Source of the DNA: Anaerophaga thermohalophila DSM 12881
GTDB lineage: Bacteria > Bacteroidota > Bacteroidia > Bacteroidales > Marinilabiliaceae
Direction of reading: 5' to 3'
DNA length: 64,000 bases
NCBI RefSeq assembly: GCF_000191885.1
Contig: NZ_AEWI01000013.1
Span: 62,001 to 126,000, forward strand
Below the pieces are notes generated by a model. The model saw only the letters and a program-made list of their open reading frames with translations, was not told the origin of the DNA and did not search any database. Shown here piece after piece: positions 10,356-61,069 of this stretch (position 1 is the stretch's first letter; each line of letters starts with the position of its first letter). The translations under genes and the position numbers were made by a program.

Positions 10356-10459
10356 GATGAAACGAGCATGGCAAAGATTGTCACAATAAGAATATGTATA
10401 AGTTCTTGCATGCGAGTTCCATCAGGCCAATGACTTAGACTAATTTTATACGGATGAAA
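10356..10459 (+). repeat. family A hairpin element abutting the SPOR gene start codon
   Basis: A 97-bp unit (10356-10452) followed by a second GATGAAA (10453-10459). The first 68 nt form an imperfect hairpin with arms GATGAAACGAGCATGGCAA and GATGGAACTCGCATGCAA (the latter on the opposite strand). A 29-nt tail ending TTTTATACG follows. The second GATGAAA contains the ATG of the gene at 10454. A 14-bp copy of the tail before the first GATGAAA suggests an older tandem unit. Confidence 0.85.
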
Positions 10460-15817: not shown

Positions 15818-16066
15818 ATGAAACGAGCATGGCAAAGATTGTCACAAAAGAATATGTATAAACACCATCTAACCTCTAATCATCAAAAAAACCAAAAACA
15901 GCGAACAGATTCTTCGTCGTTACTTCCTCAGAATGACATAAAGCAGCCTGTCATTCTGACCGAAGCGAAGAATCTGGCATCAATTAGAGTATGATAAGAT
16001 GAGTCCCGATAAGCCGGGACGAGTTGCATCAGACCAATAATTTAGATGAATTTTATACGAATAAAA
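15818..16066 (+). repeat. long-form family A element
   Basis: Begins ATGAAACGAGCATGGCAAAG and follows the short form up to TATAA. It then carries about 150 bp with an inner palindrome (ACAGATTCTTCGTCGTTA.., CAGAATGACA and inverse) and a small hairpin GTCCCGATAAGCCGGGAC, and ends with the normal tail TTTTATACG. It stops at AATAAAA, which is the A-run of the terminator at 16068. Most of the gap 15800-16161 is this element. Confidence 0.75.
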
Positions 16067-20915: not shown

Positions 20916-21388
20916 GAGTGTGCTATATAAAGCATATTTTTGTCAAAATCACGGCGTTTTAAATTTTTGTACCGGAGTTACCTGTTGTTAATTGAGAATT
21001 CATCAGTATATAATTAGTCTAAGTTATTGGCCTGATGGAACTCGCATGATTGAGTTTTATACATGTCCTTTTGTGACAAACGTTGCCATGCTCGTTTCAT
21101 CCGTATAAAATTTAATTATTACGGCCGGATGGAACTCGCATGCAAGAACTTATACATATTCTGATTGTGACAAAATTTGTCATGCTCGTTTCATCAGTAT
21201 ATAATTAGTCTAAGTTATTAGCCTGATGGAACTCGCATGATTGGGTTTTATACATATTCTTTTGTGACAAACCTTGTCATGCTCGTTTCATTCCTTTTTG
21301 AAAATTTAGCCCACCAAAATTCATGTTCGTTTCAAAAATTTGAATCAACAATGAATCTGGCAACAAAGATGCTTTTTAGAGCGGACTC
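20916..21388 (-). repeat. family B element split by a family A array
   Basis: The left part (20916-20997) starts GAGTGTGCTATATAAAGC and matches one end of the B consensus. The right part (21333-21388) resumes CAAAAATTTGAATCAACAAT and ends in a GGACTC terminus. Between them lie three family A units and about 40 bp with a further A-like scrap (TTCATGTTCGTTTCA). The B copy therefore was in place before the A insertion. This accounts for the gap 20911-21499. Confidence 0.7.
20998..21292 (-). repeat. three head-to-tail family A units
   Basis: TTCATC-type junctions at 20998, 21095, 21189 and 21286 define units of 97, 94 and 97 bp, all in one orientation. Each has the tail (GTATAAAATT or GTATATAATT), the GGAACTCGCATG arm and the CATGCTCGTTTCAT terminus. 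Differences between units (ATTAGTCTAAG versus TTAATTATTACGG) show two sequence subtypes. Confidence 0.85.
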
Positions 21389-27753: not shown

Positions 27754-27770
27754 AGTAATAAACCTTTTAT

Positions 27771-27912
27771 GAGCCCGTTCTAAAAAGCATCTTTGTTGCC
27801 AAACTCAGTGTTGTTATAAATTTTTGCATCCTCATTAACAATAAGTTAACTCCGTCACAAAAATTTAAAACGCCTTGATTTTGACAAAAATATGCTTTTT
27901 ATACCGCACTCT
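27771..27912 (+). repeat. family B element between the TPP riboswitch and thiM
   Basis: A 142-bp copy running from GAGCCCGTTCTAAAAAGC to GCTTTTTATACCGCACTC. The ends are imperfect inverted repeats. It is inserted 18 bp upstream of the thiM ATG, downstream of the riboswitch terminator. Confidence 0.8.
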
Positions 27913-27920
27913 TTTATGCT

Positions 27921-27957: not shown

Positions 27958-27997
27958 TAAATGATTTATTTCCTGGAAAATTTTATCTCATTTAACC

Positions 27998-28085
27998 AAC
28001 TGTTTCCCTACGCTGTTATTATACATCTCAGGTGCAAGGGTTTGTTCTCAGCCCCAAATTCGGAGCACCCCTAACAGTGTTCTAC
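27998..28085 (-). promoter_or_regulatory. TPP riboswitch (THI box)
   Basis: The minus strand shows all conserved THI-box parts in order: TTAGGGGTGCTCC, GGGCTGAGA, ACCCTTGCACCTGA, TATAATAACAGCGTAGGGAA. It is placed upstream of thiM-thiE-thiD, so the operon is switched off by thiamine pyrophosphate. Confidence 0.93.
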
Positions 28086-31232: not shown

Positions 31233-32043
31233 TTAGTTAAAAGGAGAATCCGGTTCTTTAGCCATGTGATTGTATGATAATTTTTCGATAAGTGACGGCC
31301 ACCATTTGTTAATAAAAACAGTTAATTTGCCTTCTTTAAAAGTCAGAACAAGGGTTCTTTTACGTTTTATTATAGCTTTGGCAAGATGTCGGGCCACCTC
31401 TTCGGCGGTCATCATTTTTTCTTCGGCACGAGGGGTTTCGCCCTGTTGACTTCCGTTGGCTGTCAGTGCCGATTTACGAACGTTGGTACCTGTAAACCCC
31501 GGAGCAGCAAGAAGGACATGAAGTCCGTTTTTCAGATTTTCTGTTCGCAGGGTTTGAAGAAAACCGTGCATGGCAAATTTGGACGCCGAATAACCTGTAC
31601 GTCCGGGTAATCCAATAAACCCTGCTATAGAAGAAATGCCAACCACCGAACCTTTGACCGCCAAAAGATAGGGCAGGGCATATTTTGTGCAATAAACAGT
31701 TCCCCAGAAATTGACATCCATAACTTTTTTCAGAACACTCAGGTCTGTATCGATAAAGAGGGCACGCATAGAAATGCCGGCATTGTTGACCAGTATATCA
31801 ATTTTTCCAAAAATGATTTACCGTTTTTTCTATCAGGTTTCTGCAATCTTCTTCTTTGCTCACATCGGTGGGAACGACCAGGACATCATGGCCCTGACCG
31901 GTCAATTCTTTTTCTATTTCCTGAAGTTTGCCGACATTGCGGGCAGCCAGCGATATTTTTGCTCCCCGTCGGGCAAATTCCCTGGCGCATGCCAGTCCTA
32001 TGCCCGATGATGCGCCGGTTATTATTATGACTTTGTCTTTCAT
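31233..32043 (-). pseudogene. short-chain dehydrogenase, disrupted by a one-base insertion
   Basis: Two frames make one SDR: the N-terminal part (32043 down to about 31810) has VIIITGASSGIGLA. The C-terminal part has GISSIAGFIGLPGRTGYSASKFA, the YxxxK catalytic motif. The break is at CATTTTTGG near 31812-31816. With four T instead of five, the text reads HFGKIDILVNNAG, the exact SDR motif. A single-T overcall or a real mutation would explain it. The intact protein would be about 270 residues. The start ATG is inside GATGAAA at a family A insertion. Function: NAD(P)-dependent oxidoreductase, substrate unknown. Confidence 0.8.
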
Positions 32044-32300
32044 CCGTATAAAATTAATCTAAGTCATTGGTCTGATGGAACTCGCATGCAAGAACTTATA
32101 CATATTCTTATTGTGACAATCTTTGCCATGCTCGTTTCATCCGTATAAAATTAGTCTAAGTCATTGGTCGAATGGAACTCGCATGATTGATTTATACATA
32201 TTCTTATTGTGGAAAACCTATCTGTGTTCATTTCATCTTAAATCTTATATCTAAAAATCTGATAATCTATTAAGGCAAACTTTGCCATGCTCGTTTCATC
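32038..32300 (-). repeat. family A array at the SDR start codon
   Basis: TTTCATC sites at 32038, 32135, 32231 and 32294 give spacings of 97, 96 and 63 bp. The first overlaps the SDR start codon. The first unit is canonical, the second decays in its distal arm (GTGGAAAACC..), and the third is only the terminal part (CAAACTTTGCCATGCTCG). Confidence 0.75.
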
Positions 32301-42745: not shown

Positions 42746-42802
42746 TTCTGGTCTGTTTTATTTTGAAAGTGCTTATTCAATTATCGTTCCAAAGTCATCT
42801 AT

Positions 42803-42943
42803 GAGCCCGGTCTAAAAAGCATCTTTGTTGCCAGACTCGTTGTTGTTTTAAATTTTTGCATCCTCATTAACAACAAGTTAACTCCGGTACAAAAATTTAA
42901 AATGCCTTGATTTTGACAAAAATATGCTTTTTATACTGCACTC
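42803..42943 (+). repeat. family B element between ftsK and lolA
   Basis: A 141-bp copy from GAGCCCGGTCTAAAAAGC to GCTTTTTATACTGCACTC, with a near-consensus interior (TTTGTTGCCAGACTCGTTGT, CTTGATTTTGACAAAAATA). Confidence 0.85.
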
Positions 42944-42960
42944 ATCTATTCAGACCGCAC

Positions 42961-46347: not shown

Positions 46348-46565
46348 GATGAAACGAGCATGACAAAGATTGTCACAAAAGAACATGTATAATTAACCTT
46401 TAATCATCTAAGAAACCAAAAACAGGTAACAGATTCTTCGGCGTTACCCCCTCAGAATGACATTAGACAGTCTGTCATTCTGAGCGGAGCGAAGAATCTA
46501 ATATCAATTAAAGTATGATAAATTCCATCAGGCCAATAACTTAGACTAATTTTATACTGATGAAA
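46348..46565 (+). repeat. long-form family A element
   Basis: GATGAAA at 46348 and again at 46559 bound a 211-bp unit. The short-form start (CGAGCATGACAAAGATTGTC) is followed by the inner palindrome (AACAGATTCTTCGGCGTTAC.., TGTCATTCTGAGCGGAGCG..) and the normal tail (GACTAATTTTATACT). Confidence 0.8.
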
Positions 46566-48121: not shown

Positions 48122-49127
48122 ATGGCTTTTAATTTAAAAAACAGGTCATTCCTGAAACTGCTTGATTTTTCAACAAAAGAGATTGCATTTTTACTTGACC
48201 TTGCACGGGAACTCAAAGCTGCCAGGTATGCGGGGATTGAACAGCCAAGGCTTAAGGGTAAAAACATAGCCCTCATATTTGAAAAAACATCGACACGCAC
48301 CCGTTGTGCCTTTGAGGTGGCCGCATACGACCAGGGGGCACATGTTACTTATCTGGGGCCGTCCGGTTCGCAGATAGGCCATAAGGAGTCGATGAAAGAT
48401 ACAGCCAGGGTGCTGGGACGGATGTACGACGGGATAGAATACCGGGGATTCGGTCAGGAAGTGGTCGAAGAGCTGGCCAGATATGCCGGTGTCCCGGTCG
48501 TGGAACGGTCGTTACAGATAAATTTACATCCGACGCAGATACTTGTCCGATTTTATGACAATGCAGGAGCATTCAACCGTACCGCTCAATCAGATTTCGT
48601 TTGCCTATTTGGGAGACGCACGTAACAATATGGCCAACTCATTACTGGCAGGAGGTGCCAAAATGGGTATGGATGTGAGAATAATAGGGCCGGCTTCTTT
48701 GCAGCCCGATCCTTCCCTTGTTGAGCAATGTCACAAAATCGCTGCCGAAACGGGGGCTGTCATTACCATATCAGACGATGTAGAAAAGGGCGTGGCCGGA
48801 TGTGATTTCCTATATACCGATGTTTGGGTATCCATGGGCGAACCCGATGAAGTATGGAAAGAACGTATCAATCTGCTGAAACCTTTTCAAATTAATACCC
48901 GAACCATGGAGCTTACCGGTAATCCGGCCTGCAAATTTTTACACTGTCTGCCTGCTTTCCATAACAGGGAAACAAGAGTAGGAGAGGACATCTTCAATAA
49001 ATTTGGTCTTGATGGCATGGAAGTAACCGAAGAGGTTTTCGAGTCGCCCGCTTCCATCGTTTTCGACCAGGCGGAAAACCGGATGCATACGATTAAGGCC
49101 GTGATGGTAGCTACTTTGGGGCAATGA
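48122..49127 (+). pseudogene. arcB: ornithine carbamoyltransferase (catabolic type), frame broken by clustered insertions
   Basis: Two frames form one OTC of about 333 residues. Motifs: carbamoyl-phosphate motif [63 protein letters not shown], and [10 protein letters not shown]. The break lies at 48500-48560. Reading against the family ([26 protein letters not shown]), four separate single-base excesses fit: G in GTCGTGG, G in TCGTTAC, A in TTTACATC and T in TTGTCCG. The frame is restored for HPTQIL after the third. Paired with arcC 143 bp upstream, it splits citrulline to ornithine and carbamoyl phosphate. Likely low-quality sequence or a recent mutation cluster. Confidence 0.82.
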
Positions 49128-49487: not shown

Positions 49488-50366
49488 ATGCAAATCAAAA
49501 CAGATATAATACACGGTGATTGTAGAGACGTTCTGAAAAAAATACCATCCGATTCTGTTGATTTGATTTTTACATCTCCTCCTTATGCCGATCAAAGAAA
49601 AACTACTTACGGGGGGATAAAACCTGAAGAATATGTAAACTGGTTCCTGCCTGTTTCGAAGGAGCTTTTAAGAGTATTGAAACCTTCAGGAACCTTCGTG
49701 CTTAATATCAAAGAAAAAGTTGTCAATGGAGAAAGAAGCACCTATGTAATGGAACTTATACTGGCTATGCGTAAACAAGGTTGGTTGTGGACAGAAGAAT
49801 TTATTTGGCATAAAAAAAACAGTTATCCGGGTAAATGGCCCAATCGTTTTAGGGATTCGTGGGAGAGGCTTCTTCAGTTTAATAAAAGCAGGAAATTTGC
49901 GATGTATCAGGAAGCTGTCATGGTGCCTATGGGTGATTGGGCAAAAAACAGGTTAAGAAAATTAAGTGACACCGATAAACGCAGAGATGAATCAAAGGTA
50001 GGCAGTGGGTTTGGTAAAAATATTTCGAATTGGCTCGCTCGTGAAAAAGCTTATCCAACCAATGTATTGCATTTATCAACAGAATGCAGTAATAAAAAGC
50101 ATAGTGCTGCTTTTCCCGAAGCACTGCCAGAATGGTTCATTAAACTATTTACCAAACCTGGCGACACGGTTCTCGATCCCTTTACAGGATCCGGAACGAC
50201 TAACTTTGTAGCGCAGAGAATGAACCGTCACTCTATAGGGATTGAACTATATAAAGAATATTTCGATTATATCAAAGAAAGAATTGAACCCACAAAGTTA
50301 GTTCTGTTTGAACCCAATACCGACTATGAATCAACTGAAATTAAAAGACGTAACCAAATACGTTGA
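49488..50366 (+). CDS. type II DNA methyltransferase (beta-class, SPPY type)
   Basis: A 292-residue methyltransferase with motif IV near the N-terminus (VDLIFTSPPYADQ, near residue 32) and motif I near the C-terminus (DTVLDPFTGSGTTNFVA, near 235), the beta-class order. The SPPY motif fits N4-cytosine methylation, though N6-adenine is possible. Central target-recognition region includes WHKKNSYPGKWPNRFRDSWERLLQF. It protects DNA from the nuclease encoded by the overlapping gene at 50326. With that nuclease gene broken it may now be an orphan methyltransferase. Confidence 0.88.
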   Translation: MQIKTDIIHGDCRDVLKKIPSDSVDLIFTSPPYADQRKTTYGGIKPEEYVNWFLPVSKELLRVLKPSGTFVLNIKEKVVNGERSTYVMELILAMRKQGWLWTEEFIWHKKNSYPGKWPNRFRDSWERLLQFNKSRKFAMYQEAVMVPMGDWAKNRLRKLSDTDKRRDESKVGSGFGKNISNWLAREKAYPTNVLHLSTECSNKKHSAAFPEALPEWFIKLFTKPGDTVLDPFTGSGTTNFVAQRMNRHSIGIELYKEYFDYIKERIEPTKLVLFEPNTDYESTEIKRRNQIR

Positions 50367-51160
50367 GGAAAATATCGGAACATTTCATCCGTATAAAATT
50401 TAATTATTAAGGTTGGATGGAACTCGCATGCAAGAGTTTTATACATGTTCTATTGTGACAAACTTTGTCATGCTCGTTTCATCAGAAAAGAATTGATGGA
50501 TTAAAGAAATTGGAGTTAAAAAGCGTTCTAAAGAGAAAGAATCCATACCTCTTTAAAGCTAAACATCTCCTTACCGCAGAAGAAATTATCCGAAAGCTTA
50601 CTGATGCATTTATTTCCTCAAATGAAGAAACTCTTTTTGGGGATTGGCTGGAAGGACTTGCCATTTTCATTAATCAAAAGGTTTATAATGGTTGGAAATC
50701 CGGAATACAAGGCATTGATCTGGAATTTGATAAAAATAATATTCGTTACATTGTTAATATTAAATCCGGACCAAATTGGGGAAACAGTAGTCAAATCGGG
50801 AAAATGAAAAGTGATTTCAATACTGCCAGGCGTACCCTCAGAACCAGCAATTCCGGCTTAATGGTAGTCGCTGTTAACGGATGCTGCTATGGAAGAGATA
50901 ATAATCCTGATAAAGGAAGCTATTTCAAATATTGTGGTCAGGATTTCTGGAGTTTTATTTCCGGAGAGGAGAATCTATATAAAGACATTGTTGAGCCGAT
51001 AGGTCATAAAGCAAAAGAAAAAAATGAAATGTTTTTGGCTTCTTATGCCAAAATGATCAACAAATTCACAAAAGAATTCGCAAATGATTTTTGTAATGAC
51101 AACGGTGAGATTAACTGGGAAAAACTTGTAGAATTTAATTCAGGCAAGGTTTCCACATAG
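50326..51160 (+). pseudogene. type II restriction endonuclease interrupted by a family A element
   Basis: The gene starts at ATG 50326, overlapping the methyltransferase end by 41 bp, and encodes MNQLKLKDVTKYVEENIGTFH before it runs into repeat DNA and a stop (TAA). The frame resumes at 50483 as QKRIDGLKKLELKSVLKRK.. to 51160. The two parts are in frames one base apart, and removal of the 94-bp unit joins them exactly at TTTCATCAG, giving 246 residues. The joined protein resembles PmeII-family restriction enzymes (from memory). Residues VNIKSGPNWGNSSQIGKM form a likely PD-(D/E)xK core. The nuclease is probably inactive unless a downstream start is used. Confidence 0.85.
50383..50483 (-). repeat. 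family A element inserted in the restriction endonuclease gene
   Basis: TTTCATC at 50383-50389 and at 50477-50483 are 94 bp apart. Between are the tail (CGTATAAAATTTAATTATT), the GGATGGAACTCGCATG arm, the TGTGACAAACTTTGTCATG arm and GCTCG. It is of the same subtype as the middle unit at 21095-21188. Confidence 0.92.
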
Positions 51161-51458: not shown

Positions 51459-52238
51459 TCACTTTGCCGTTTTCGCTTCATTCCAGATTTCATCCATTTG
51501 GGCCAAAGTAAGGTCTTTGAGGTTAATACCCTGTTTTATAGTTTTTTGCTCAAGATAATTAAAGCGTTTAATGAATTTATGATTGGTACGTTCAAGTGCA
51601 TTTTCAGGGTTTACGCCATACAATCGAGCTGCATTGATTAGTGAAAAGAAAAGATCACCAAATTCATCTTCAATAGCGTCTTGTCTGCCTTTGAGCATTT
51701 CATCTTTCAACTCGGCCAATTCTTCCTGCACTTTTTCCCACACCTGGTCACGGTGTTCCCAGTCGAATCCGACACCACGTGCTTTATCCTGAATTCTATT
51801 GGCTTTTACCATGGCCGGCAATGATTTTGGGACTCCTGCCAAAACAGAACGATTTCCATTTTTTTCTTTCAATTTTAGTTGTTCCCAGTTTTGCTCTACC
51901 TCGGTGGCACTTTTTACTTTAGTTTCGCCAAAAATATGCGGATGACGATAGATGAGTTTCTCAATCAACGATTCAATAACATCCTCAATGGTAAAAGTCC
52001 CTTTTTCCTCACCTATTTTAGCATAAAAAACGATATGGAGTAGCAGATCGCCCAACTCTTTTTTTATGGCTTCATCCGAGTTTTCTATAATGGCATCGGC
52101 CAGTTCATAGGTTTCTTCTATTGTGAGTGTCCGTAATGATTCATTCGTTTGTTTACGATCCCACGGGCACTTTTCTCTTAGCTCATCCATTATTTTGAGC
52201 AATCGCCCGAATGCTTCTTTCTTTTCGTGCATTTTCAT
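51459..52238 (-). CDS. mazG: nucleoside triphosphate pyrophosphohydrolase MazG
   Basis: A 259-residue protein with two MazG repeats. The first has CPWDRKQTNESLRTLTIEETYELADAI and KKELGDLLLHIVFYAKI; the second has GFDWEHRDQVWEKVQEELAEL and EDEFGDLFFSLINAARLYGVNPENALERTN. Both carry the ExxE..ExxD metal motifs. It hydrolyses NTPs to NMP and PPi, a house-cleaning function. It is normal in length. The start ATG is part of the GATGAAA at which a family A element is inserted, so the leader is repeat-derived. Confidence 0.94.
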   Translation of the reverse strand: MKMHEKKEAFGRLLKIMDELREKCPWDRKQTNESLRTLTIEETYELADAIIENSDEAIKKELGDLLLHIVFYAKIGEEKGTFTIEDVIESLIEKLIYRHPHIFGETKVKSATEVEQNWEQLKLKEKNGNRSVLAGVPKSLPAMVKANRIQDKARGVGFDWEHRDQVWEKVQEELAELKDEMLKGRQDAIEDEFGDLFFSLINAARLYGVNPENALERTNHKFIKRFNYLEQKTIKQGINLKDLTLAQMDEIWNEAKTAK

Positions 52239-52335
52239 CAGTATATAATTTACTTAAGTTATTGGTCTGATGGAACTCGCATCAATGATTATATACATGT
52301 TCTTTTGTGACAAACCTTGTCATGCTCGTTTCATA
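52233..52335 (-). repeat. family A element at the mazG start codon
   Basis: TTTCATC at 52233 (containing the mazG start codon on the minus strand) and TTTCATA at 52329 are 96 bp apart, with the tail, both hairpin arms and the GCTCG end all present. Confidence 0.85.
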
Positions 52336-54117: not shown

Positions 54118-54313
54118 GGCCAATGATAGTTTTATCAAGTTTTTACTTAGGGTGTATGTTATATATTGTTAATCAGTAGACTGTGTTTGGTGAAATTGAA
54201 TAAACAGATGTTTTGATCCAGCCCGTGATTGTTGATAAAATTATTTTTTAAGCAAAACGAAGATAATATTTTGCTTTGTATTTTAAACGGTAAAGTGTGA
54301 TTTTTATATCATT

Positions 54314-54454
54314 GAGCCAAGTCTAAAAAGCATCTTTGTTGCCAAACTCGTTGTTGTTTTAAATTTTACATCCTCATTAACAATGAGTTAACTCCGATGC
54401 AAAAATTTAAAACGCCTGGACTTCGACAAAAGTATGCTTTTTTATACTGCACTC
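54314..54454 (+). repeat. family B element
   Basis: A 141-bp copy from GAGCCAAGTCTAAAAAGC to TTTTATACTGCACTC, upstream of the GH16-like gene. The rest of the gap 54455-54822 holds no gene I can recognise. Confidence 0.8.
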
Positions 54455-54822
54455 ATCATTTATTAAAATTTTGCCGGATGAGGATTTCTCCTGCGCCTGA
54501 TTAAACAACGGGCAATTTCTGGCGAAATTATATTCAATCTTTAAAAACAACTTGTTTTACAATTATTTATACTGAAAATCTGACAGATGGTTTCAGGAGT
54601 TAATTGTTTAATCCTGGATCAGTCATTTTGGATCAGGGGAAAAAATTCAGGAAGGCTTTTTATGGAGGGACACTACGTTTTTTCAGGACAAGCCTGAAAA
54701 AAAGCCCCTGTGCGGGATTTAGTCGACTTAAACAACATGGTGGTTAGTTTTCTGCCCTAAGCGCCTAAGTAAATTAACTTTGGATAGAAACCTTGCCTGG
54801 CTTCGTTGAGGCAATTATGCCA

Positions 54823-54925
54823 AATGAAACGAGCATGGCAAAGATTACCACAAAAGAACATGTATAAGTTCTTGCATGCGAGTTCCATCAGACCAATAAC
54901 TCAGGCTGATTTTATACTAATAAAA
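54823..54925 (+). repeat. family A element beside the tRNA terminator
   Basis: AATGAAACGAGCATGGCAAA at the left and TTTTATACT followed by AATAAAA at the right, 96 bp apart. The right junction is in the A-run of the terminator hairpin at 54922, as at 16066. Confidence 0.85.
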
Positions 54926-55741: not shown

Positions 55742-56415
55742 CCTTTATTAGTGAGGAGCCGCACCAGTTGGATTATTTAAACTCCTGACGACAGGATTTG
55801 AGCACATCCGATAATCGGGGATCCTCCGTGTCCGAAGACAACCCGAAGGTTGAGGCCTGCCCTTTTAACGGATAGTTTCACTCGGTATGTTTGTAGTGTT
55901 GAGTTTAACAATCAATAATTCTGGTGCGGCATATCTTTATTCCATTATTTTATCATTATCAAGGCCTGATACCATTTGTATGAAGGAATTTATTCTTGTA
56001 TCCTTCATGACAAACCCTACATCTTCCATATTCATTTCAATGATCTTTCTGTTACCCCAAATTCTTGCAAGCAAGCGACGGAGCCGAGCGATGTAATTTT
56101 CGCACACCACAAAAAAAAAATTAAAAGTGTAAGCTTTTTACCTCACCCCTTCGGTGAAAATCTACAATTTCCCAGTCGGGGTTATACCTGAATAAAGCGT
56201 TTTTTCATTTCGTTCAAACAACTCAATTCAGGTATTACAAAAGTAGCTTAAACATTCAATGTTTGCAAGCTTTAATTGCTATTTTCTCATTTAATATGAA
56301 TGTTGCTGAATAACAGGGGACAAAGCCTTCCGAAATGTTCTATTATCCGGATTGAATAATTAAGAACCGGTCGCAACTTTGGATTTTGTGATTTTAGGGA
56401 TAAGAATGATGAACG
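55742..56415. other. stretch without recognised gene
   Basis: GC-rich patch 55755-55880 contains the short hairpin CAACCCGAAGGTTG, and a run of A10 is at 56111-56120. Frames on either strand are broken. It could be a decayed gene (minus strand segments such as RYNPDWEIVDF), but I cannot name one. Confidence 0.3.
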
Positions 56416-58411: not shown

Positions 58412-58485
58412 CCTTCTTTAAAATTGAACGTTCTTAGTGTTGTCATTAGCTTACAGAAAAGAACGATGTTTTGTTTAAACAAAGT

Positions 58486-58626
58486 CGAACCCGGTCTAAA
58501 AAGCATCTTTGTTGCCAAACTCGTTGTTGTTTTAAATTTTGCATCCTCATTAACAACAAGTTAACTCCGGTACAAAAATTTAAAACGCCTTGATTTTGAC
58601 AAAAATATGCTTTTTATACTGCACTC
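58486..58626 (+). repeat. family B element
   Basis: A 141-bp copy from GAACCCGGTCTAAAAAGC to GCTTTTTATACTGCACTC between the UPF0316 and prfC genes. Confidence 0.85.
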
Positions 58627-58665
58627 AAAGTTAGTCTTAACAGGAAAAACTCAAAATACCTGGTA

Positions 58666-60240: not shown

Positions 60241-60451
60241 GTTCTTTAAATTTTCAGCCTGCAAAATTAGTCATTGTAATTGAACCCCAAAGCTATTTTT
60301 CCTGTTTTCTCTTATTGTTTTACATCCCGGAATTGTTTCTGCGTTCAGGCCTTTTATCGAACTATAAATTTTATACAGACCCTAATTAATGATTTGTTAA
60401 AGAATCAGTAGATCGTCAGATTTTTAAAGGTAAGATGATTCTTATATCATT

Positions 60452-60592
60452 GAGCCCGGTCTAAAAAGCATCTTTATTGCCAAACTCGTTGTTGTTTTTA
60501 ATTTTTGCATCCTCATTAACAACAAGTTAACTCCGGTACAAAATTTTAAAACGCCTTGATTTTGACAAAAATATGCTTTTTAGACTGCACTC
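60452..60592 (+). repeat. family B element upstream of thrA
   Basis: A 141-bp copy from GAGCCCGGTCTAAAAAGC to GCTTTTTAGACTGCACTC. The remaining gap (60593-61069) is AT-rich promoter sequence without a recognised leader peptide or attenuator. Confidence 0.85.
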
Positions 60593-61069
60593 ATCATTAA
60601 TATACACTATTGATAACAAACAATCCTATTTAGCTACAAACAATCGGTTTTCGGTGTATTGTAAAAGTTTAACGAAGTGTTGAGAACCAAACTTACGATT
60701 TAAAGGATTTTTTAGCAGATCGATAACATTTATCATGTTTTCACCTGTTTTTTTTCTACATTTGCTAATTTGAAATAATAAGCATTTAATTATTGGTCAA
60801 TACTGCCTTAAATTTTTACAAATGACTTGTAATTAATTATTTATTGAATCGAAAAGGTCAATCATAACTCTCTGCCAATAAAACTTTACGTCTTTCAGAA
60901 TCTATAGCATCAGAAAAGGATTGCTCTGTGTTTAGACTTTTTTTTAACGACTATTAATTGGTGATAGTTAAACCATATATTTTTATAAAATATTGATAAA
61001 GAAAATGGTAATCTTTGTCGTTTAAAGTTTTGAAATAAAAAAAGGAACAAAAAAAAGGAACAATTTTTT

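What the first reader, a model, noticed from the sequence alone, without database searches (positions are those of the whole stretch)
50326..51160. A short repeat has inserted into a restriction endonuclease gene, and its removal restores the frame exactly
The N-terminal 21 codons (MNQLKLKDVTKYVEENIGTFH) overlap the methyltransferase end in a different frame. The rest of the nuclease begins after a 94-bp family A unit bounded by TTTCATC on both sides. Frame positions differ by one base, 94 is 1 modulo 3, and the joint reads TTT CAT CAG AAA (FHQK), continuous with the family as I remember it. This shows that family A is an inserted unit and maps its ends to the base. It also suggests that the methyltransferase is now unopposed.
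Basis: partly seen in the sequence, partly recalled or inferred. Interest (0 to 1): 0.88.

Follow-up and report, generated by a model that had tools for sequence, protein, structure and literature searches.

The report
Hairpin mobile element inside restriction gene
A 94-base hairpin element, one of hundreds of copies in this bacterium, has inserted cleanly into a DNA-cutting defence gene and broken its reading frame; a sister strain still has the intact gene, and the element carries a short internal code that pairs with both of its ends, while the enzyme that moves it was not found.

Summary
Anaerophaga thermohalophila Valhall (same genus) has the empty site, with the nuclease frame open and TTTCATC once. 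In 78 of 79 homologue loci the frame is open across the joint. The nuclease is Pfam PF14511 (EcoO109I family). Two points change. TTTCATC is not the boundary: six independent empty sites put the join after WTTC, so the element is 50387-50480, without target duplication. And the nuclease shows no decay (dN/dS 0.03), so "methyltransferase unopposed" is unproven.

The element belongs to a large set: 290 exact cores in this genome, matches in 25 of 61 genomes, this one included. Copies read WTTC^N5...n5-GGAAC-TC-hairpin-TC-GTTTC; n5 covaries with N5, and GGAAC is complementary to the terminal GTTTC. This works like IS200/IS605 ends reduced to one hairpin with one guide. No Y1 locus examined has these ends, and no TnpB or Y2 match was found in this genome, so the enzyme is unknown. 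IS200/IS605 membership is not claimed. Verdict: new variant of a known kind.

The parts
49488..50366 (+). DNA methyltransferase of the R-M pair (PF01555 N6_N4_Mtase)
   Evidence: E 8.5e-49; also present in Valhall L001
50326..50386 (+). 5' part of the restriction endonuclease gene, overlapping the methyltransferase end, up to the target tetranucleotide
50383..50386 (+). target tetranucleotide TTTC (consensus WTTC) left of the element
   Evidence: empty sites; searches left-flank counts
50387..50480 (+). inserted 94-bp element, ATCCG...GCTCGTTTC
   Evidence: empty site in Valhall and five other empty sites; copies
50387..50391 (+). N5: first five bases of the element (ATCCG), complementary to n5
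50414..50418 (+). n5: left half of the internal guide (TGGAT), covaries with N5 across copies
50419..50423 (+). GGAAC: right half of the guide; complementary to the terminal GTTTC (one G-T pair) and to the target WTTC
   Evidence: invariant by selection
50426..50473 (+). hairpin GCATG...CATGC, separated from guide and end by TC on both sides (symmetric internal loop)
50476..50480 (+). GTTTC: element-coded right end
50481..51160 (+). rest of the restriction endonuclease gene (PF14511 RE_EcoO109I), one base out of frame with the 5' part
20999..21291 (+). three tandem copies of the same element family
32039..32236 (+). two tandem copies
52234..52334 (+). another copy, 1.8 kb downstream
10357..10458 (-). 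another copy
54824..54921 (-). another copy
46349..46564 (-). 215-bp relative: same left and right ends with a longer middle

Best explanation
The 94-bp unit is a non-autonomous mobile element that moves as folded single-stranded DNA, in the manner of IS200/IS605 insertion sequences, with an enzyme supplied from elsewhere (or since lost). Shown: it inserts directly 3' of a (T/A)TTC tetranucleotide without duplicating the target; its own right end is also TTTC; its first five bases (N5) are complementary to n5, just before GGAAC; GGAAC is complementary to the terminal GTTTC; a hairpin with a symmetric TC/TC loop lies between; N5 and n5 covary across genera. Inferred: the ten-base guide n5-GGAAC holds the two sides of each cut. 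It would pair WTTC|N5 at the left junction and GTTTC|N5 in an excised circle, with the cut at the joint of its two halves; the WTTC part of a new target would be chosen by pairing with GGAA. In this copy the insertion split the EcoO109I-type nuclease gene just after codon 20. It is recent in evolutionary terms or tolerated, because the nuclease shows no decay.
For: Empty site in Valhall; of 188 clusters 15 gave candidate empty sites; 8 rows are clean (window 50383; L145; L154; L146; L118; and L112, L147, L148, which share one place in another repeat and count as one event), so six events, all consistent with WTTC^. L146 (next target base C) and L118 (next base G, two units in tandem) fix the join after TTC. 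Left ends: T 44, A 16, C 1, G 0 of 61 at the W position; T 64, A 34, G 4, C 1 of 103 in the wider set. Right ends: T at that position in 51 of 51, so the right TTTC is element-coded. Covariation: 140 of 146 full units parsed, 662 of 700 possible N5-n5 pairs against a shuffled mean of 593 and a maximum of 614 in 2000; over 11 genomes 83 of 113 cores perfect (24 more with 4 of 5, 6 with fewer) against a null mean of 33 perfect, maximum 46 of 300 shuffles; types ATCCG/CGGAT, ATCAG/CTGAT, ATTCG/CGAAT, ATCTG/CAGAT, ATATG/CATAT, ATGTG/CACAT, TTCTG/CAGAA; covariation score 0.222 against shuffled 0.075, 0 of 500. Folding of this copy, top strand: z -2.8, 0 of 200 shuffles as good. Published IS200/IS605 logic (tetranucleotide flanking LE, guide 5' of the hairpin foot, final tetranucleotide of RE): passages of PMC6006769 and PMC8266576.
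Against: No transposase with these ends was found. This genome has two Y1_Tnp matches: one IS200-like gene whose immediate flanks are other palindromes, and one Y1 domain inside a long methylase-like ORF; no TnpB match (PF07282), no Y2 match. Family-A copies do lie near that IS200-like gene: one full and two partial matches 277-576 bases upstream of it, on the opposite strand, so not as its ends; at about one cluster per 8 kb (102 in 833 kb) that is not surprising. None of the 29 Y1 loci L201-L229 had the element; they are 29 of more than 150 listed matches in 48 of 61 genomes, so most Y1 genes were not inspected. G008 has 10 cores and no Y1 match; G018 has 114 cores and one weak match. There is one hairpin, whereas IS200/IS605 elements have one at each end. 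Clusters lie on both strands within most contigs (102 clusters; 9 and 14 on C199, 2 and 8 on C211; smallest p 0.11). Three other copies fold only slightly better than shuffles (z -0.8, -1.6, -1.3) and the bottom strand of this one gives z -2.0. Two of the five measures are weak (35 and 28 of 500 shuffles reach them). The N5-n5 pairing is not, as far as I recall, a described feature of IS608-type ends.
Confidence: 0.6

Rival explanations
1. It is a REP-type element of a TnpA_REP (RAYT) system: hairpin plus foot recognised by a domesticated Y1 transposase, such as the Bacteroidetes subclass 2.6 with 'atypical secondary structures'.
For: Size, hairpin with an internal loop and high copy number resemble REPs; E. 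coli REPs need a stem bulge (PMC8266576, passages); subclass 2.6 REPs lack GT[AG]G (PMC6006769, sections 12-13 and passages). A relative of the element sits inside two duplicated RAYT genes of G002.
Against: No GTAG foot. In the ten stretches L230-L239 fetched around weak, RAYT-like Y1 matches the only element hits are the two inside the G002 genes; the Valhall RAYT is flanked by another palindrome. This genome has no free-standing RAYT match.
Confidence: 0.2
2. It is an attC-like folded site moved by a tyrosine recombinase, as integron cassettes are.
For: Arm / short spacer / arm / loop layout, AAC...GTT at the arms, tandem arrays; a tyrosine recombinase that resembles IntI by my own reading is present in this genome (L135); a Xer-like recombinase gene has family-A copies on both sides in L133, and on one side in L134, which holds the same protein.
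Against: Integron exchange is at G^TT (recalled); here the base before the join is T or A, G in 0 of 61 or 4 of 103; no conserved recombinase arms in the target beyond WTTCAT. None of the 30 recombinase loci L250-L279 carries the element; relatives of the L135 protein occur in 59 of 61 genomes, with and without the element. Copies beside the Xer-like gene are expected at this density.
Confidence: 0.1
3. A new kind of self-guided element: one ten-base internal guide addresses both ends, and the enzyme is neither a Y1 nor a Y2 transposase.
For: Exact guide/end complementarity across genera and no matching transposase among the loci and families examined.
Against: Absence of evidence in draft genomes; only Pfam-detectable families were searched, and only part of the Y1 loci were inspected.
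Confidence: 0.1

Closest known systems
IS200/IS605 family insertion sequences (IS608, ISDra2)
   Same: insertion 3' of a short fixed tetranucleotide, no target duplication, element ends in a tetranucleotide, guide just 5' of the hairpin
   Different: no gene inside, one hairpin instead of two, one guide serving both ends, extra N5-n5 pairing, no strand bias seen, no cognate TnpA found
REP / REPIN elements with TnpA_REP (RAYT)
   Same: short, mostly outside genes, high-copy, single hairpin with a mismatched loop in the stem, some tandem
   Different: no GTAG foot; fixed left end mostly 31-36 bases upstream of the guide; defined insertion join with empty sites; not flanking the RAYT genes examined
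Integron attC sites / CALIN arrays
   Same: folded two-arm hairpin with an unpaired spacer and tandem units
   Different: join position, target preference and lack of gene cassettes
Classical MITEs with TIR and target duplication
   Same: non-autonomous, high copy
   Different: no target duplication; another repeat of this genome (window 42797-42946) looks like this type
PF14511 RE_EcoO109I restriction enzymes
   Same: profile match E 4.4e-87
   Different: the gene here is split by the element

Membership tests
IS200/IS605 | inserts 3' of a specific short target without target duplication | tested here: met
   six independent empty sites, all WTTC^
IS200/IS605 | element ends with a tetranucleotide read by a guide 5' of the hairpin foot | tested here: met
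   sequence only: GTTTC complementary to GGAAC; right-end T in 51 of 51; the reading itself is inferred
IS200/IS605 | subterminal hairpin at both ends | tested here: not met
   one hairpin only; the left end pairs with the shared guide
IS200/IS605 | Y1 transposase TnpA encoded, or a relative with the same ends encoding it | tested here: not met
   in the G000 and G001 stretches 26 LE-RE pairs: 24 span 395 bases or less, the 1664-base one has no open frame over 218 codons, the 3940-base one was not inspected; none of the 29 Y1 loci L201-L229 has these ends; most Y1 matches were not inspected
IS200/IS605 | orientation bias with replication | tested here: inconclusive
   mixed strands within most contigs; replichores not mapped
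IS200/IS605 | single-stranded circle intermediate, 5'-phosphotyrosine cleavage | not testable with these tools
   needs experiment
REP (TnpA_REP) | GT[AG]G foot at the hairpin | tested here: not met
   GGAAC + TC at the foot
REP (TnpA_REP) | copies flanking a RAYT gene | tested here: not met
   (stretches L230-L239 and L188); only an insertion inside two duplicated RAYT genes; other RAYT genes not examined
Integron attC | exchange at G^TT in GTTRRRY / RYYYAAC | tested here: not met
   the base before the join is T or A; motif recalled
IS91 / Y2 elements | Y2_Tnp helper present | tested here: not met
   no PF04986 match in G000, G001 or G018; 14 of 37 genomes searched have one
TIR/TSD MITE | target-site duplication | tested here: not met
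PF14511 restriction endonuclease | profile match over the gathering score | tested here: met
   291.4 bits against 22.5

The most novel reading that the evidence does not exclude
A self-guided single-stranded mobile element: one internal ten-base DNA guide recognises both element ends, and half of it the target, so that insertion and exact excision are read by the same code; it is driven by an enzyme outside the known Y1/Y2 transposases, and insertion in a conserved nuclease gene acts as a reversible off switch that lets the methyltransferase stay on.
Probability: 0.15. Interest if true: 0.85.

Novelty: new variant of a known kind. Interest (0 to 1): 0.62.

Why it matters
It is a minimal ssDNA-type element whose ends can be read from sequence: N5, n5 and GGAAC predict both joins, and the pairing holds across genera. 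Hundreds of natural copies with covarying guides are a ready-made mutational series for asking how guide pairing sets cleavage. The missing enzyme is a concrete target to look for. The nuclease case shows a clean break (or possible reversible switching) of a restriction gene with the methyltransferase gene left intact.

Tried and rejected
Assembly artefact: rejected, because both flanks are syntenic with Valhall and the join is at the family's target. TTTCATC as a true 7-base target or duplication: rejected by sites where the next target base is C or G, or A followed by A.

Target choice by the n5 half of the guide: the right-hand target bases do not follow the guide type (per-position pairing equals that of shuffled guides), so only the WTTC half plus a constant preference for AT is supported.

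The IS200-like TnpA of this genome (L131) as partner: its flanks are different palindromes, though family-A copies lie 277-576 bases away on the other strand. TnpB, Y2 and recombinase searches. Autonomous copy by pairing left and right ends: 26 pairs, 24 of them up to 395 bases, one of 1664 bases without a long frame, one of 3940 bases not inspected. Plasmid records: no match at E 0.01. PDB: no sequence hit for the nuclease piece at E 0.001. Rfam: no match on the element at gathering scores. Literature: one search found no paper with Anaerophaga, repeat and insertion sequence; one search was loose (6,820 papers with 3 of 5 terms, ten listed, none on this element by title); one search searched three 12-base stretches of the element and gave two unrelated papers; some searches gave listings on IS200/IS605, REP and MITE elements, of which only PMC6006769 (passages, sections 12 and 13) and PMC8266576 (passages) were opened; one search gave nothing of use. 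The library lacks most subscription journals, so "not described" is limited to those searches.

Selection effects: searches used the exact pattern GGAACTCG...CTCGTTTC, so these bases are invariant by construction; the best of all TTC sites 24-48 bases upstream was scored (the null does the same), and 4 of 117 cores had none; A1 took 48 of the 49 rows picked, each with at least 4 of 5 N5-n5 pairs and at most two per genome and guide type (L301 left out). One search kept 58 right ends, dropping those followed by another unit or by a recurrent downstream repeat or not ending in TTC. One search left 6 of 146 units unparsed. One search examined 79 of the 80 loci (L053, which matched from residue 4, was left out).

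Full report
What is there. The window holds an R-M pair: a PF01555 methyltransferase (49488-50366) and a PF14511 (EcoO109I-family) nuclease gene that starts at 50326 and ends at 51160. Just after codon 20 lies a 94-base unit. The two parts are one base out of frame, and the frame of the first part stops a few codons into the unit.

It is an insertion. Anaerophaga thermohalophila Valhall, the closest nuclease relative listed from the species collection (98% at the protein level), has the same two genes with the unit missing and the frame open. Valhall is also G001, the only same-genus genome listed: its contig has the same length, 15338 bp. Homologues align across the joint: 78 of 79 loci have at least 19 open residues upstream of FH, most with a motif like YVEENIG; the exception, L077, has a stop five residues upstream. 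This genome has no second PF14511 match. The nuclease is not decaying: dN/dS 0.031 at dS 0.30 against 0.047 for the methyltransferase. An in-frame TTG inside the element opens a 231-codon frame. So the gene is split, but the insertion is either young or tolerated.

Exact ends. In one search, 188 clusters of the family were compared with 833 kb of this genome, 739 kb of Valhall and 20 stretches of other relatives; 15 rows passed. Five of these are not empty sites (the compared place also holds element sequence), two are too diverged to read (L124, L159), and eight are clean, three of them at one place inside another repeat and counted once. The six events are window 50383, L145:8621, L154:1490, L146:734, L118:343 and the nested one. 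They share only (T/A)TTC. At L146 and L118 the target continues with C and G, while the element continues with A, so the element is ATC[CA]G...GCTCGTTTC and the join is 3' of WTTC. There is no target duplication. The left tetranucleotide varies at its first base (T 44, A 16, C 1 of 61) and the right one does not (T in 51 of 51), so the left belongs to the target and the right to the element. After the join the target prefers A (53 of 58) and T (45 of 58), then nothing clear. In G002 a relative sits in two duplicated RAYT genes with the same TTTC^ rule, read there from the coding frame rather than from an empty allele.

Architecture. The copies read WTTC^N5 - about 21-26 bases - n5 - GGAAC - TC - hairpin - TC - GTTTC^. 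N5 is complementary to n5. In 140 parsed units of 146, 662 of 700 pairs form, against 593 on average after shuffling and at most 614 in 2000 shuffles. Over 11 genomes 83 of 113 cores are perfect, 24 have 4 of 5 and 6 fewer; null mean 33 perfect, maximum 46. In the 48-row alignment the pair at columns 9/37 is C-G 23, A-U 15, U-A 8, U-G 1, other 1, and 7/38 is C-G 31, U-A 11, A-U 2, G-C 1, other 3. The hairpin arms also change together in a minority (A-U to C-G in 7 of 48 at columns 50/108), while the innermost pair counted fails in 9 of 48. GGAAC, TC and GTTTC are invariant there because the pattern demanded it. GGAAC is complementary to GTTTC with one G-T pair. Thus one internal ten-base guide can hold N5 and either the target WTTC (left junction) or the element's own GTTTC (right end, or the junction of an excised circle), and the join lies exactly between its two halves. 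This last sentence is inference from complementarity. Folding energy alone is modest: this copy z -2.8, three others -0.8 to -1.6.

Numbers and spread. The exact core GGAACTCG-N30-60-CTCGTTTC occurs 290 times in this genome (149 and 141 by strand), 114 in G018, 89 in Valhall, 76 in G023, 55 in G031, and in 25 of 61 genomes in all, this one included; 23 of the 25 belong to this family of bacteria, the others are G038 and G042; the pattern read backwards gave one hit in total. In this genome the elements avoid genes: 5 of 59 testable clusters lie inside a frame of 130 or more codons, against 826 of 1017 WTTCA control sites away from elements. Of the five, the window case lies 26 codons into a frame of 252 by that script's start choice; three others lie 15-20 codons from a frame's start and one (L121) 185 codons into 223. 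The nuclease is thus a rare, apparently dispensable, genic landing site. Two contigs of the viral collection hold one core each.

What moves it. Insertion beside a fixed tetranucleotide without duplication, with a guide 5' of a hairpin and a terminal tetranucleotide, is how IS200/IS605 ends are described (PMC6006769, passages; PMC8266576, passages). I therefore favour movement of a folded single strand by an HUH-type enzyme. Against it: the element has one hairpin, not two; clusters lie on both strands within most contigs (102 clusters); and no enzyme was found. This genome has two Y1 matches, one IS200-like gene with other palindromes as flanks and one Y1 domain inside a methylase-like ORF, no TnpB match and no Y2 match. 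Family-A copies lie 277-576 bases upstream of the IS200-like gene on the opposite strand; with about one cluster per 8 kb this is not surprising, but it keeps that gene a candidate. None of the 29 inspected Y1 loci L201-L229 carries the element, out of more than 150 listed matches; in L248 copies lie about 2.2 kb from a Y1 gene. Copy number does not follow Y1 content: G008 has 10 cores and no Y1 match, G018 has 114 and one weak match, G006 has 3 Y1 matches and no core. Relatives of a tyrosine recombinase found here are present in 59 of 61 genomes, with and without elements, and the 30 fetched loci lack the element; a Xer-like gene here does have copies beside it. So I say the element works like IS200/IS605 ends but do not file it there.

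Verdict. Finding confirmed; insertion proven by an empty site; boundary and enzyme family corrected; the biology is larger than one broken gene: a gene-less hairpin element, widespread in this family of bacteria, with a single internal guide and an unidentified enzyme. New variant of a known kind; interest 0.62.

Noticed in passing
window 42797-42946, 58480-58629, 27765-27914, 54308-54457, 60446-60595: A second repeat family of about 150 bp that, unlike family A, shows a short direct repeat of the target; two copies (42797, 58480) are absent at the same places in Valhall. Family A copies are nested inside it elsewhere (L112, L147, L148).
   Followed up: partly
L116, L122, L163, L167, L186 (G000/G001 stretches): A third repeat family with ends like TGTCTGTCCATAAAG and its complement and a variable middle (inserts of 83-309 bp), present or absent between this genome and Valhall.
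   Followed up: no
window 46349-46564, 15818-16063: Longer relatives of family A with the same ends and a longer middle: 24 of 26 left-right pairs in the G000 and G001 stretches span 212-395 bp.
   Followed up: partly
window 48122-49127: An ornithine carbamoyltransferase-like gene is split into two frames by several single-base differences within about 50 bases, while Valhall has one open frame; clustered like draft sequence errors.
   Followed up: partly
L132 (G000:C198:33727-34002): A Y1 (RAYT-like) domain lies in frame inside a long N6-methylase-like ORF with repeated SSLSENPP motifs; Y1 matches inside frames of 1295-1399 codons also appear in G001 and G023.
   Followed up: no
L276 (G001:C258) and similar loci: The recombinase of L135 matches in two blocks about 930 bases apart within one 720-codon open frame in Valhall; frames of 676-751 codons recur in relatives.
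   Followed up: no
L294, L297, L298 (G009): In three G009 copies an extra hairpin (TCCC...GGGA type) appears to be inserted inside the guide, between its two halves (read by eye).
   Followed up: no
L133 and L134 (G000:C74 and C183): The same Xer-like recombinase protein is encoded on two contigs, with family-A copies beside it on both; duplicated gene or overlapping contigs.
   Followed up: no
window 55751-55931 and 27988-28082: Bacteroidales-1 (6S-like) RNA and a TPP riboswitch.
   Followed up: no
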